From Picosynechococcus sp. PCC 7117 (GTDB taxonomy: Bacteria; Cyanobacteriota; Cyanobacteriia; Cyanobacteriales; MRBY01), in the NCBI RefSeq assembly GCF_001693275.1, contig NZ_CP016477.1:186001-250000 (forward strand): a stretch of 64,000 nucleotides of DNA, read 5' to 3'. Shown here piece after piece: positions 45,133 through 50,452 of this stretch. The stretch's first letter is position 1; every line of letters starts with the position of its first letter. Under the pieces are notes generated by a model. That model made no database searches. It was not told the origin of the DNA and was given only the letters and a program-made list of their open reading frames with translations. The translations under genes and the position numbers were made by a program.

Positions 45133-46455
45133 ATGTCAAACTCTAAACCCTTTGTACTCGGTGCAACAGCTCTAGTGTTAACCACTGTGGCGGTTACAGG
45201 GGCAGGGCTGCACTACTCTAAAAGTCAAGCCTACCTCAAAGACAGCCCAAAGGAAATTGTGGACGAGGTTTGGTATGTCATCAACAAAGAATATGTTGAT
45301 GCGACCTTTAACCAAAATGACTGGCGTCAGGTGCGGCAAAAGTTTCTCAGCAAAGACTATGCCAACACGGACGAAGCCTACGATGCAATTCGGGAAATGT
45401 TAGATCTCCTGGGAGATCCTTACACCCGGTTTATGCCCCCCCAAGATTTTGAAAATTTACAGGTTGATACGTCCGGTGAGTTGACCGGGGTCGGCATTCA
45501 GATCGCCAAGGATAAAGATACAGAAGAGGTGGTCGTGATTGCGCCCATTGAGGAGACGCCAGCCTTTGAAGCGGGCATTATGGCCCAAGATGTGATCGTT
45601 GCTGTGGATGAGCAACCCACCGAAGGGATGGAACTCAACGATGTGGTGAATTTGATCCGGGGCCAACGGGGTACGGAGGTCACCCTCACCATTCGCCGAG
45701 ATGAGCGAGTATTAGAATTTCCCATTGTCCGGGAAGTGATTCAGATTCACCCGGTAAAGGCACGGATTAATGAGAGTCCCATTGGGGATGTGGGCTATAT
45801 TCGCTTGACCCAATTTAGCGCCCAGGCAACGGCAGAGATGCGCGAGGCGATCGCCGATCTAGAGTCCCAAAATGTCGATGGCTACGTTTTAGATCTGCGT
45901 TCAAATCCTGGGGGACTGCTCTACGCCAGCATTGACATCGCCCAAATGTGGCTCGACGGTGGTGGGATTGTTTCGACGGTAAACCGTGTCGGGGAAGTGG
46001 ATCGCCAGGAGGCCAGTGACCGTGCCCTAACGGATAAACCCCTGATCGTTTTAGTGGACGGGGGATCCGCCAGTGCCAGCGAAATCCTTTCTGGCGCGCT
46101 CCAGGACAATCAACGGGCGGTACTTGTAGGGACGCAAACCTTCGGTAAGGGCCTAGTCCAGTCTGTCCGCCGCCTAGGGGATGATTCTGGGGTTGCCGTG
46201 ACGGTGGCAAAATATTTGACCCCCTCTGGTCGGGATATCAATAAAGAAGGCATTGCGCCGGACTTTATCGTGGAACTTGATGAAGCTGATCAAGAAACAT
46301 TGCAAGAAGATCGCACAAAAATTGGTACAATGGCTGACCCGCAATATGCCAAGGCGATCCAACTGCTCGACGAACAACTCCGTACTGGGACGATTGTGAT
46401 CCCCGAAAAACAGGCCAGTACTGAGCGACCGAGCCGCCCCGCCCAGGATAGCTAA
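45133..46455 (+). CDS. C-terminal processing serine protease (CtpA family, S41)
   Basis: A 440-residue exported protease. An N-terminal hydrophobic signal or anchor (FVLGATALVLTTVAVTGAGL), a PDZ domain (about residues 100-185) and the S41 catalytic domain follow. The Ser-Lys dyad motifs are GGSASASEILSGAL (Ser) and TFGKGLVQSV (Lys). CtpA cleaves the C-terminal extension of the D1 protein of photosystem II in cyanobacteria; the CtpB and CtpC paralogues have other substrates, and this sequence alone does not tell which it is. ATG at 45133. The C-terminal end is proline-rich. Confidence 0.87.
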   Translation: MSNSKPFVLGATALVLTTVAVTGAGLHYSKSQAYLKDSPKEIVDEVWYVINKEYVDATFNQNDWRQVRQKFLSKDYANTDEAYDAIREMLDLLGDPYTRFMPPQDFENLQVDTSGELTGVGIQIAKDKDTEEVVVIAPIEETPAFEAGIMAQDVIVAVDEQPTEGMELNDVVNLIRGQRGTEVTLTIRRDERVLEFPIVREVIQIHPVKARINESPIGDVGYIRLTQFSAQATAEMREAIADLESQNVDGYVLDLRSNPGGLLYASIDIAQMWLDGGGIVSTVNRVGEVDRQEASDRALTDKPLIVLVDGGSASASEILSGALQDNQRAVLVGTQTFGKGLVQSVRRLGDDSGVAVTVAKYLTPSGRDINKEGIAPDFIVELDEADQETLQEDRTKIGTMADPQYAKAIQLLDEQLRTGTIVIPEKQASTERPSRPAQDS

Positions 46456-46564
46456 ACTCCCTAGTCCTTGGTTTCAGCGATCGCCCTTTAAAAGGCCGTT
46501 ACAAATCTTGTTGCGGTGGCGATCGCCCCCCGGATCCCAGGCCCAACTTCCCTGGATTTACAGC

Positions 46565-46586
46565 CTTAAGATTTGCTTAAGATTTT
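46565..46586. repeat. 11-bp tandem direct repeat upstream of the Rep-like gene
   Basis: CTTAAGATTTG (46565-46575) is followed at once by CTTAAGATTTT (46576-46586), a tandem repeat about 80 bases before the start of the CyRepA1-like gene. It resembles a minimal iteron pair, but two copies are too few to claim an origin. Confidence 0.4.
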
Positions 46587-46664
46587 TTTTAAAATAAAGT
46601 TGCGCACCAGATATAGAGTGGAGTATGCTTAGTTACCCTACATCTAGCGTCTGAGGTGCAACCC

Positions 46665-49600
46665 ATGGATCATGTTCAAGAATGGCAGCAAAGCTGTGTT
46701 GATCCTGAACTCATCCAACTGAATGTTATTTCCCTAGAGGGCGATCGCCCTTTGGATTATTTGCTCTATTCAGAGGCGTTGCCCCGACGAAATGATGGTC
46801 GTTTGGGGGACAGTTACCTCCAGCGCTATCAACACACCGAGGCCGGGGGCTGGTGGTGTTCTGGCGTCGATATTTTGACGGGAAAGGCTGACCTTTGGGG
46901 CTGTTTCAAACCGGAACAACCCCGCGTCAATCCAGAAAAAGGCAAACCCATCAAGTACGAACACCCCCCGAAAACGAGTACGGGCCTGTTTGCGTTACGC
47001 CTGCCGCCCCATGTGTGGGAACGGGTGGCCCGCCGCCATCAACTGGAATTTAGCCAAGACGATTGGGACGATACCCAGCCCGATGGGGGCTTTTGGCAAT
47101 GGCTAAAGGAACATCCCCAAATTCCCTTGATTATTACTGAAGGGGCGAAAAAAGCAGGCTCTCTCCTCAGTGCCGGCTACGGGGCGATCGCCCTGCCGGG
47201 AATTTACGGAGCAATCCGGACGCCCAAGGATGAATTTGGCCACCGCATCGGCCAATCTCGACTGATTCCCCAACTGAAAAAACTGATTCACGGGCAGCGC
47301 ACCATTTACATTGCCTTTGACCAGGACGAAAAACCCACCACCATCCGGGCCGTGCGCAGTGCCATCCGGAAAACGGGTTATTTACTCAAACAAGCCGGTT
47401 GCCCCGTCAAGGTGATCACCTGGGACCGTCGTGCTGGGAAAGGGGTGGATGATCTCATTGCAAACCAAGGTCAAGCCGCCTTTGAAGCTGCCTTTCAAGA
47501 CGCCCCCAGCCTCGATCTCTGGAAAGCCCAAGACCTTGAACAACTCACCTATCCCCGTCACCAAATCCTCCACCAGCGGTATCTCCCGGAGCAGTTAACA
47601 ATTCCCCCAGCAGCCAAGTTAATTGCGCTCAAATCTCCCAAAGGAACGGGCAAAACCCGTTGGCTAGAATCAGTTGTTGCAGGGGCGATCGCCCGCCAAC
47701 AGCCCGTCCTTGTGATTGGGCACCGCATTCGTCTCGTCGAAGAACTCTGTCAGCGGTTTGGCCTCGATTACATCCGTGATCTTCCCCGGGGCAAAGATCG
47801 ATCCAAGGAACCCAACCTAAAAATTAATGGCTATGGCCTCTGCATTGATTCTCTGCATGGCAAATCCCAGGCCCGTTTCAATCCCCATCACTGGGGTGAT
47901 GCCCTGATTATTTTTGACGAAGTAGAACAAGTGCTATGGCACGGGTTAAATTCCAGCACCTGTCGCGATAACCGGGTCAATATTCTCCAGAGCCTCAAGC
48001 ACCTGCTGCAAAATGTCTTTGTCGGCGAAGGCCAAATTTACATCAGTGATGCCGACTTGAGTGATGTTTCCATTGACTATCTCCTGACCCTGGGAGGCCA
48101 GAAGCTTCAGCCCTATCTCATTGAAAATACTTGGCAAGCGGATACCACCACCCACTACACCCTCAATCACTATCCCGATGGCACACCAAAACGGCTAGTC
48201 AAGGACTTGGTGCAACATATCCAAGGGGGCGGGCGGCCTTTTATCTGTCTCTCTGCCCAAAAACTCAAGAGCCAATGGAGCACTTCGACCCTCGAAATTT
48301 ACCTCAAAAATCAGTTTCCTGACCGCAAAATTCTCCGCCTTGATGCGGAATCCCTGGCGGATCCTGAACATCCTGCCTACGGTGCCATGGGCCAAATTAA
48401 CCAAACCCTCGCCCAGTATGATGTGGTTTTAGCGAGTCCAGCTGTGGAAACGGGGATTAGTCTCGATTTGCAGGGACATTTCACCTCGGTGTGGGCGATC
48501 GCCCAGGGGGTACAAACGGTTAATTCCATCTGCCAGGCCCTGAGTCGAGTGCGTGAAAATATTCCGCGTCATCTCTGGGTGGCCAAATATGGCTTTAACA
48601 CCATCGGCAATGGGGCCACTTCCATTCCGGCACTACTCACCTCCAGTCAAAGGCTCACCCAAACGAATATCCGCCTGCTGCAACAGTCTGACTTTATCGC
48701 CCTTGATGATTTAGACACTGCTTTTCAGGCTGAATCCCTTCTGTGTTGGGCCAAATTTGCGGTGCGGATTAATGCGGGCATGGTGAACTACCGCGAGGCC
48801 GTGCTCGCTCATCTTCAGCGGGAAGGACATCAGTTGTCGGCGGTACCAAAACACCGCAAAACGACGGCGACTCAAAGCCAACCCGATAATCAATTGGCCA
48901 CGGCGATTAATTCCATTCGCGATACGAACTACCAAGCAGAATGTTTGGCGATCGCCCAGGCAACCCCCTTGAGTACCAAAGACTACCAACGCCTGAAAAA
49001 GAAACTCCTGAAAAGCCCCTCTGAACGACAACAACTCCGCAAATACGAACTCCAGAAACGCTACAATCTCCCCGTCACCGCTTCCCTAGTGGCCAAAGAT
49101 GACGACCACTGGTACCAAAAGCTGCGGCGTCACTATTTCCTGACCCTGGGTCGCCCTTACCTGGCGGATCGAGATGCCCTCATCGCCACTCACCTGATGC
49201 AACAGGGGGGCGGGCAAATTTTCCAGCCTGATTTTAACCACTCCCAAATGGGGGCAATCATCGGCACCATGGAAATTTTGGGGATCACCACTCTCCTCGC
49301 CCAGGCCAATCGACCGCTCCACAACCTCGATCCAGAGATGCAACGACTGGCGGCGATCGCCTTAGAAAATCGAGATGCCATCAAGACCACCGTTGGCATT
49401 GGCCTCGCGAAAAATTCTACCCCGATCATGATTCTGCGTCGCTTCCTCGAACTACTCGGCCTCGAACTGAAATACCTCAAGATCACCACCATTCAGAAAA
49501 AACGCACCCGTATTTACCAAATCAGTCAGCCCCAGGATCAACGCCAAACGGTCTTCCAACATTGGCTACAAACCGACCAAAATTGCCCAGGCACCTCCGC

Positions 49601-49715
49601 TTTCTGGCAAGAAGACTGCCAAAAATACCTGGCTAAGCTTCAGGAAACCCGGCACCAAACGGAATCAAACTATGTCCAACTGACGTTTGAGTTACCGACC
49701 CCAGAGGCGTCCTAA
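46665..49715 (+). CDS. CyRepA1-like plasmid-type replication protein (toprim-like/DUF3854 plus helicase)
   Basis: A 1016-residue protein. An N-terminal part with conserved aromatic and Gly residues is followed by a DUF3854/toprim-like domain (about residues 155-262: PLIITEGAKKAGSLLSAGYGAI, TIYIAFDQDEK) and a helicase-like region with Walker A SPKGTGKT (about 324-331), Walker B IIFDEVEQ (about 415-422), SAVETGISL-like motifs and a motif VI-like QALSRVREN. This layout matches the plasmid replication proteins of cyanobacteria now called CyRepA1 (homologues of the pCC5.2 Rep). It is likely a primase-helicase/initiator. ATG at 46665 with ribosome site GAGGTG is preferred to the upstream GTG. No partition or transfer genes adjoin. 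Confidence 0.75.
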   Translation: MDHVQEWQQSCVDPELIQLNVISLEGDRPLDYLLYSEALPRRNDGRLGDSYLQRYQHTEAGGWWCSGVDILTGKADLWGCFKPEQPRVNPEKGKPIKYEHPPKTSTGLFALRLPPHVWERVARRHQLEFSQDDWDDTQPDGGFWQWLKEHPQIPLIITEGAKKAGSLLSAGYGAIALPGIYGAIRTPKDEFGHRIGQSRLIPQLKKLIHGQRTIYIAFDQDEKPTTIRAVRSAIRKTGYLLKQAGCPVKVITWDRRAGKGVDDLIANQGQAAFEAAFQDAPSLDLWKAQDLEQLTYPRHQILHQRYLPEQLTIPPAAKLIALKSPKGTGKTRWLESVVAGAIARQQPVLVIGHRIRLVEELCQRFGLDYIRDLPRGKDRSKEPNLKINGYGLCIDSLHGKSQARFNPHHWGDALIIFDEVEQVLWHGLNSSTCRDNRVNILQSLKHLLQNVFVGEGQIYISDADLSDVSIDYLLTLGGQKLQPYLIENTWQADTTTHYTLNHYPDGTPKRLVKDLVQHIQGGGRPFICLSAQKLKSQWSTSTLEIYLKNQFPDRKILRLDAESLADPEHPAYGAMGQINQTLAQYDVVLASPAVETGISLDLQGHFTSVWAIAQGVQTVNSICQALSRVRENIPRHLWVAKYGFNTIGNGATSIPALLTSSQRLTQTNIRLLQQSDFIALDDLDTAFQAESLLCWAKFAVRINAGMVNYREAVLAHLQREGHQLSAVPKHRKTTATQSQPDNQLATAINSIRDTNYQAECLAIAQATPLSTKDYQRLKKKLLKSPSERQQLRKYELQKRYNLPVTASLVAKDDDHWYQKLRRHYFLTLGRPYLADRDALIATHLMQQGGGQIFQPDFNHSQMGAIIGTMEILGITTLLAQANRPLHNLDPEMQRLAAIALENRDAIKTTVGIGLAKNSTPIMILRRFLELLGLELKYLKITTIQKKRTRIYQISQPQDQRQTVFQHWLQTDQNCPGTSAFWQEDCQKYLAKLQETRHQTESNYVQLTFELPTPEAS

Positions 49716-49792: not shown

Positions 49793-50452
49793 CTAGGATT
49801 TAGCTTCGAGACCCACGGGACAGCCGACCCCTGTACCACCGAGGCCACAGTAGCCCCCTGGATTTTTTGCGAGATACTGCTGATGGTATTCTTCCGCGTA
49901 ATAAAATTCCGGTGCCTCCAAAATTTCCGTTGTGATCGCGCCATAACCCTCGGCCTTTAAAGCATCTTGGTAGGCCTCTAGGGATGTCTGGGCCAATTGT
50001 TTTTGAGCCTCGGAGTAGGTGTAAATACCAGAACGGTACTGGGTGCCTACATCGTTACCTTGGCGCATGCCTTGGGTGGGATTATGGCTTTCCCAAAAAA
50101 CCTTGAGGAGAGTCTCGTAGGACACTTGCGTAGGATCATAGGCAACAAGAACCACCTCATTGTGGCCCGTCATCCCAGAGCAGACTTCCTGATAGGTTGG
50201 ATTGGGGGTGTGGCCAGCCGCATAGCCCACCGCTGTACTAAAAACGCCGGGGGTTTGCCAAAATTTGCGCTCTGCCCCCCAAAAACAGCCCAGACCAAAC
50301 ATCGCAAGTTTGATCCCTGCGGGGAAGGGGGGAGCAATGGGATTGCCATTGACGAAATGCTGATCGGGGATAGGCATTGTTTGGGTACGACCGGGTAAAG
50401 CCTCCTGGGGCGTAGGCATCTGGGTCTTTTTACCGAGCAAACCAAAAAACAT
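49793..50452 (-). CDS. msrA: peptide-methionine (S)-S-oxide reductase MsrA
   Basis: A 219-residue MsrA, which reduces methionine-S-sulfoxide in oxidised proteins. The active-site motif [11 protein letters not shown] (Cys followed by FWG) is at about residue 55, with later [12 protein letters not shown] and the [20 protein letters not shown] region. The C-terminal cysteines in [13 protein letters not shown] could act as resolving cysteines. ATG at 50452. The first about 45 residues look like a spacer before the conserved domain. Confidence 0.95.

What the first reader, a model, noticed from the sequence alone, without database searches (positions are those of the whole stretch)
46456..49715. 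CyRepA1-like plasmid replication protein in a chromosomal setting with an iteron-like tandem repeat
A 1016-residue toprim-like plus helicase protein resembles Rep proteins of cyanobacterial plasmids, but it is embedded among housekeeping genes (a C-terminal protease and msrA). An 11-bp tandem repeat (CTTAAGATTT) lies about 80 bases upstream. It may be a domesticated plasmid replicon, a relict of an integrated plasmid, or a chromosomal helicase-primase with a new role.
Basis: partly seen in the sequence, partly recalled or inferred. Interest (0 to 1): 0.65.

Follow-up and report, generated by a model that had tools for sequence, protein, structure and literature searches.

The report
Chromosomal primase-helicase tied to dNTP supply
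A gene whose known relatives copy plasmids has become a permanent chromosomal gene in many cyanobacteria, and its switch carries the same paired NrdR control sites as the genes that make DNA building blocks, which points to a role in copying or repairing the chromosome itself.

Summary
The gene is real: CDS 46665-49715, 1016 aa, CyRepA1 family (NF042913, 509 bits), a DnaG-fold primase core fused to a UL9/origin-binding-protein-type SF2 helicase with intact motifs. It lies on a 3.09-Mb chromosome. It is not a plasmid relict: it belongs to a monophyletic chromosomal clade (52-100% identity; about 75 of 194 sampled genomes of the order) under strong purifying selection (dN/dS 0.03). All plasmid copies found are below 50% identity and fall outside the clade. 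The 11-bp 'iteron' is a two-copy repeat at chance level and poorly conserved. A matrix trained only on ribonucleotide-reductase promoters ranks this pair first in the window. The pair recurs at 3- or 4-turn spacing in 41 of 49 chromosomal orthologs, in 0 of 13 plasmid copies, and in 0 of 11 diverged chromosomal copies from genomes lacking NrdR. Most likely this is a domesticated primase-helicase made alongside ribonucleotide reductase, serving chromosome replication or repair. Chromosomal CyRepA homologs were known, function unknown; I found no report of the NrdR link. A role in DnaA-independent initiation is now testable.

The parts
46665..49715 (+). chromosomal CyRepA-family primase-helicase gene, 1016 aa (ATG start; GTG at 46656 is the alternative)
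   Evidence: NF042913 508.7 bits, DUF3854 2e-51; orthologs in 6/6 congeners; dN/dS 0.03 against G002
46665..47564 (+). N-terminal DnaG-fold primase core, residues 1-300, with Toprim/DUF3854 at residues 143-271; acidic residues E159, D219, D221, D262
   Evidence: AlphaFold2 pLDDT 85.8; matches to DnaG and T7 gp4 primase cores, Z 13-14 over about 195-226 residues; residue conservation
47613..48848 (+). SF2 helicase core, residues 317-728: Walker A GTGKT 327-331, DEVE 418-421, QALSRVR 624-630
   Evidence: closest solved relatives are HSV-1 origin-binding protein: E 2e-9 by profile, Z 23 by structure; motifs conserved in all groups
46604..46619 (.). NrdR box 1 (GCACCAGATATAGAGT), starting within the -35 hexamer and lying between -35 and -10
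   Evidence: RNR-trained matrix 16.1 bits; best pair in the 64-kb window; matches the published NrdR-box expression
46635..46650 (.). NrdR box 2 (ACCCTACATCTAGCGT), 31 bp downstream of box 1, just after the -10 hexamer
   Evidence: 17.8 bits; only zero-mismatch pair in the genome for a 31-bp degenerate pair pattern derived from these boxes
46600..46605 (+). -35 hexamer TTGCGC of the sigma70-type promoter
   Evidence: TTGCGC or TTGCAC in all six congeners
46624..46629 (+). -10 hexamer TATGCT (18-bp spacing)
   Evidence: TATGCT, TATTGT or TATTCT at the same spacing in all six congeners
46565..46585 (+).
   Evidence: TRF; chance-level; absent in L006, degenerate in L007 and L009

Best explanation
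The gene is an anciently domesticated, vertically inherited chromosomal member of the CyRepA plasmid-replicase family: a DnaG-type primase core fused to a UL9-like SF2 helicase. It is transcribed from its own promoter, which NrdR represses through two boxes on one face of the DNA. When dATP is high, NrdR shuts the promoter. When dATP falls because DNA synthesis is active or needed, the gene is derepressed together with ribonucleotide reductase. The protein then unwinds and primes DNA on the chromosome, most likely in replication initiation, restart or fork rescue. Shown here: domain content, chromosomal location, clade, purifying selection, box sequence, spacing and phylogenetic distribution. 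Inferred: that NrdR binds, the direction of regulation, that the primase and helicase are active, and that the substrate is the chromosome.
For: A monophyletic chromosomal clade of 49 sampled members has 100% support, and its families mostly group as families. No plasmid record of 240 holds a match above 49.5%. A matrix trained only on 16 RNR promoters of these genomes finds the cyRepA pair as the best in 64 kb (33.9 bits; all lower-ranked listed pairs reuse one of its boxes or overlap it; 1.46-kb stretches elsewhere in the window never exceed 8.4). In-phase pairs score at least 18 bits in 41/49 chromosomal orthologs, 0/13 plasmid copies, 0/11 diverged chromosomal copies from NrdR-less genomes, and in no CDS control. 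NrdR is present in all 58 sampled genomes outside family f28 and absent in all 11 of f28. With spacing left free, 35/44 pairs are in phase, p 5e-13 by a simple binomial that ignores relatedness; NrdR is known to accept 14-17 or 24-27 bp spacers (PMC12051234). The matrix also recovers pairs at 41-42 bp in four RNR genes not used for training. Box C4 and G13 are near-invariant, as in the NrdR-DNA structure (PMC9110341). The boxes overlap a conserved promoter. Primase and helicase folds. dN/dS 0.03-0.17.
Against: No binding, expression or phenotype data. Three orthologs of one genus (f2 g48) and L044 have NrdR but no boxes at cyRepA, so the link can be lost. Only 12/49 promoters pass the strict published two-box expression (background about 1%); the window's own pair does, but it is one of six in-phase matches in 64 kb by that weaker test. 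Five of 49 orthologs also reach 18 bits at out-of-phase spacing, mostly because one box is very strong. The NrdR-less control is a single family, so it counts as about one evolutionary event, and its CyRepA copies belong to the other chromosomal clade. The plasmid control is likewise a difference between lineages.
Confidence: 0.7

Rival explanations
1. Chromosomal replication initiator: the protein acts as the missing initiator that lets these cyanobacteria start chromosome replication without DnaA-oriC.
For: Synechococcus sp. PCC 7002 (Picosynechococcus), by its pAQ1-like plasmid and genome layout a close relative of this strain, replicates from one origin near dnaA but does not need dnaA, initiator unknown (PMC7198777). 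CyRepA1 is required for pSYSA replication (PMC9978351). Fold resembles herpesvirus origin-binding protein. Two 2.8-3.0-Mb genomes without dnaA (G162, G171) keep the gene intact.
Against: No positive association with dnaA loss: by my count 7 of about 75 carriers lack dnaA against about 23 of 119 others, and dnaA-less family f13 lacks the clade in the genomes listed. Distance from dnaA is not conserved. No iteron-like origin beside the gene.
Confidence: 0.15
2. Helper in trans: a chromosome-encoded replicase that maintains the cell's plasmids.
For: Same family as plasmid Reps; plasmids with their own CyRepA in the same genome.
Against: Own plasmid C2 encodes its own CyRepA. The clade is kept in apparently plasmid-free single-contig genomes such as G012, G014, G045, G162 and G171. 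Control together with RNR suggests a general DNA-synthesis role.
Confidence: 0.1
3. Relict of a plasmid integrated into this chromosome.
For: Family is best known from plasmids.
Against: Shared across genus and order in one chromosomal clade, strong purifying selection, no plasmid genes nearby, GC and GC3 like neighbours.
Confidence: 0.03
4. The paired boxes are bound by another dimeric regulator, not NrdR.
For: No binding data.
Against: Same motif and spacing at RNR genes of the same genomes; absent where NrdR is absent; fits the published NrdR spacer rule.
Confidence: 0.07

Closest known systems
CyRepA1 plasmid replication protein (Slr7037 of pSYSA; B0001 of pAQ1)
   Same: Same domain order and motifs, NF042913 family; about 40% identity
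   Different: Chromosomal clade separate from all plasmid copies examined; NrdR boxes instead of the pSYSA sRNA/asRNA control region; no plasmid around it
Chromosomal CyRepA homologs counted by the CyRepX paper (PMC10899382: 80 of 145 cyanobacteria)
   Same: This gene is of that kind; their function was left open there
   Different: That paper, in the passages read here, gives no clade structure, regulation or role for them
Herpesvirus origin-binding protein UL9 (9hgj, 9hgi) and giant-virus origin-binding helicases
   Same: Closest solved and predicted structures for the helicase part
   Different: UL9 lacks the primase domain (own knowledge); origin-specific binding not shown here
DnaG / T7 gp4 / Twinkle primase cores
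   Same: Residues 1-300 take the same fold, Z 11-14
   Different: No zinc-binding domain in front; the SF2 helicase is unlike the DnaB-type helicase of gp4 (family knowledge); lysine (K163) at the place of a DnaG acidic residue, by motif comparison from memory
NrdR regulon of ribonucleotide reductase genes
   Same: Box sequence, spacing and promoter overlap
   Different: Target is a primase-helicase, not an RNR gene

Membership tests
CyRepA1 family (NF042913) | Profile score above curated cut-off | tested here: met
   508.7 bits against 200
CyRepA1 family (NF042913) | N-terminal DUF3854 Toprim and C-terminal DEXDc helicase | tested here: met
CyRepA1 family (NF042913) | Supports autonomous plasmid replication | not testable with these tools
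   needs transformation assay
NrdR regulon | Two palindromic boxes of the NrdR type | tested here: met
   RNR-trained matrix 33.9 bits, first in window; fits published expression
NrdR regulon | Box centres an integral number of helix turns apart | tested here: met
   31 bp here; 31 or 41-43 bp in most orthologs
NrdR regulon | nrdR gene in the genome | tested here: met
   G000:C1:1007420-1007860, 212 bits
NrdR regulon | NrdR binds and represses | not testable with these tools
   no binding or expression data held
DnaG-type primase | DnaG RNA-polymerase-domain fold | tested here: met
   Z 14.0, 226 residues, rmsd 4.0
DnaG-type primase | Zinc-binding domain | tested here: not met
   protein starts at the position of DnaG residue about 139; no zinc-ribbon profile hit
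DnaG-type primase | Metal-binding acidic residues | tested here: inconclusive
   E159, D219 and D262 conserved in all members checked, D221 in most; one DnaG acidic place holds K163 by motif comparison
Iteron-controlled plasmid replicon | Array of direct repeats (iterons) beside rep | tested here: not met
   two copies only, chance-level, not conserved
Integrated plasmid remnant | Plasmid backbone genes in flanks, restricted distribution | tested here: not met

The most novel reading that the evidence does not exclude
The NrdR-controlled chromosomal CyRepA is the initiator, or one of the initiators, behind DnaA-independent chromosome replication in cyanobacteria: a plasmid- or virus-type origin-binding primase-helicase that took over chromosome starting and is set by the dATP pool.
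Probability: 0.12. Interest if true: 0.92.

Novelty: new variant of a known kind. Interest (0 to 1): 0.62.

Why it matters
Chromosomal CyRepA homologs have been counted in more than half of the cyanobacteria examined, but what they do was left open. Placing one ancient chromosomal clade under the repressor of ribonucleotide reductase gives a first handle on function: it ties a plasmid-type primase-helicase to the cell's DNA-precursor supply. It also offers a concrete candidate for the unknown machinery that starts or rescues chromosome replication in cyanobacteria that do not need DnaA, testable in Picosynechococcus PCC 7002, a tractable laboratory strain.

Tried and rejected
Iteron reading of the 11-bp repeat: rejected (chance-level count, not conserved). 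Pho-box reading of the same repeat (8-bp units, 11-bp period, SphR consensus PyTTAAPyPy(T/A) from memory): the units CTTAAGAT do not fit at positions 6-7, and pst/pho promoters were not compared. Plasmid relict: rejected. DnaA replacement: tested by dnaA presence across 194 genomes; no positive association. Conserved neighbourhood: only ctp is shared within the genus; flanks differ between families. Literature searches for an NrdR-CyRepA link gave nothing; RegPrecise itself could not be opened, so an entry there cannot be excluded.

Full report
What is there. The reading frame is 46665-49715 (+), 1016 aa, downstream of ctp (45133-46455) and upstream of the convergent msrA (49793-50452, -). It lies on contig C1 of 3,087,720 bp, the chromosome. 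It passes the NCBIfam CyRepA1 model with 508.7 bits and carries DUF3854. The same genome has a separate 4.7-kb plasmid whose CyRepA is only 41% identical.

The protein. AlphaFold2 on 29 aligned relatives gives mean pLDDT 84.7 and pTM 0.83. The first 300 residues, folded alone, take the fold of the DnaG RNA-polymerase domain and the T7 gp4 primase (Z 13-14). The Toprim acids E159, D219 and D262 are conserved in all members checked and D221 in most; one DnaG acidic place appears to be lysine. Residues 317-728 are an SF2 helicase, and its nearest solved relative by sequence profile and by structure is the HSV-1 origin-binding protein. Walker A, DEVE and the arginine motif are intact in chromosomal and plasmid members alike. 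Weak phage relatives are annotated as primases or replication proteins. So it is built as a primase-helicase; activity is inferred.

Not a plasmid relict. All six genomes of the genus carry it, the five others at 75-98% identity. In the order, about 75 of 194 genomes (my count from the table) have an ortholog of 54% identity or more, many in single-contig chromosomes. In a tree of 84 proteins the 49 chromosomal orthologs form one group with 100% support, and most families in it group as families. No plasmid record reaches 50% identity. dN/dS is 0.03 within the genus. GC and GC3 are close to those of ctp next door, and no plasmid gene is nearby.

The repeat. CTTAAGATTTG in two copies is at chance level for a 64-kb window and is lost or degraded in relatives.

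The promoter. Comparing congeners exposed a conserved promoter, TTGCGC-18 bp-TATGCT, overlapped by two palindromes whose starts are 31 bp apart. They look like NrdR boxes. To test this without circularity, a matrix was trained only on the promoters of ribonucleotide reductase genes in 16 of these genomes. It was seeded with the NrdR consensus as I remember it and refined on those promoters. It then ranked the cyRepA pair first in the whole window, 33.9 bits; 1.46-kb stretches drawn from the rest of the window never exceed 8.4. A degenerate 31-bp pair pattern, drawn from these boxes, has no other zero-mismatch match in the genome; the only other hit has three mismatches. Among chromosomal orthologs 41 of 49 have in-phase pairs of 18 bits or more, most spaced 31 or 41-43 bp. 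None of 13 plasmid copies does. Published binding work shows that NrdR accepts box spacers of 14-17 or 24-27 bp and binds others far less well (PMC12051234), and those are the spacings seen. NrdR is present in 58 of 69 genomes checked; the 11 without it are all of one family, and their diverged chromosomal copies show no boxes. A second chromosomal clade, 34-37% identical, carries boxes in several NrdR-positive members. In genus g48 the boxes are kept at RNR but lost at cyRepA.

Mechanism. NrdR represses when dATP rises (PMC9110341). By inference cyRepA is derepressed together with RNR when DNA synthesis draws dATP down. A primase-helicase made at that time most simply serves chromosome replication, restart or repair. 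PCC 7002 replicates from one origin without needing DnaA (PMC7198777), so the initiator reading is open. But carriers of the gene are not enriched for dnaA loss, and its distance from dnaA varies, so I give that reading 0.12-0.15.

Limits. The NrdR-less control is one family and therefore roughly one evolutionary event, and the plasmid control is likewise a difference between lineages. The strict published two-box expression catches 12 of 49 promoters against a background of about 1%. Out-of-phase pairs reach the threshold in five orthologs because one box is very strong. The binomial on spacing ignores relatedness. Nothing here measures binding, expression or phenotype.

Known against new. 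Chromosomal CyRepA homologs were reported in 80 of 145 cyanobacteria with function unvalidated (PMC10899382). I found no report of NrdR control in the library at hand; RegPrecise could not be checked.

Noticed in passing
L111-L130: A second chromosomal CyRepA-like clade (34-37% identity to the window protein) occurs in families f11, f19, f26, f27 and f28; no sampled genome in the listed rows has both clades. Several NrdR-positive members (L117-L119, L124, L126) also have paired NrdR-like boxes.
   Followed up: partly
G054, G140, G190, G102, G152, G170, G034, G086, G185 (f28); G023, G083, G030, G038: Genomes with the second clade gave no match to the RNR large-subunit model PF02867, while all tested genomes with the first clade did; the CyRepA clade and the RNR type go together in this sample, possibly only through phylogeny.
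   Followed up: no
L095, L097, L106 (G068, G128, G115): Genus g48 keeps NrdR and RNR boxes but has lost the boxes at cyRepA; two of the three genomes also lack dnaA.
   Followed up: partly
L072-L077: RNR large-subunit genes of G014, G081 and G113 are interrupted, as if by an intron or intein.
   Followed up: no
G162, G171 (L102, L092): Small single-contig genomes (2.8-3.0 Mb) without dnaA keep an intact chromosomal cyRepA with NrdR-like boxes.
   Followed up: partly
L003 (G000:C6), L004 (G000:C4): Two larger DUF3854-type or helicase-type relatives (open frames of 1271 and 1156 aa) lie on other contigs of the same genome, probably plasmids.
   Followed up: no
G071:C5, G188:C24: Two orthologs are truncated (open frames of 754 and 705 aa), possibly decaying copies.
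   Followed up: no
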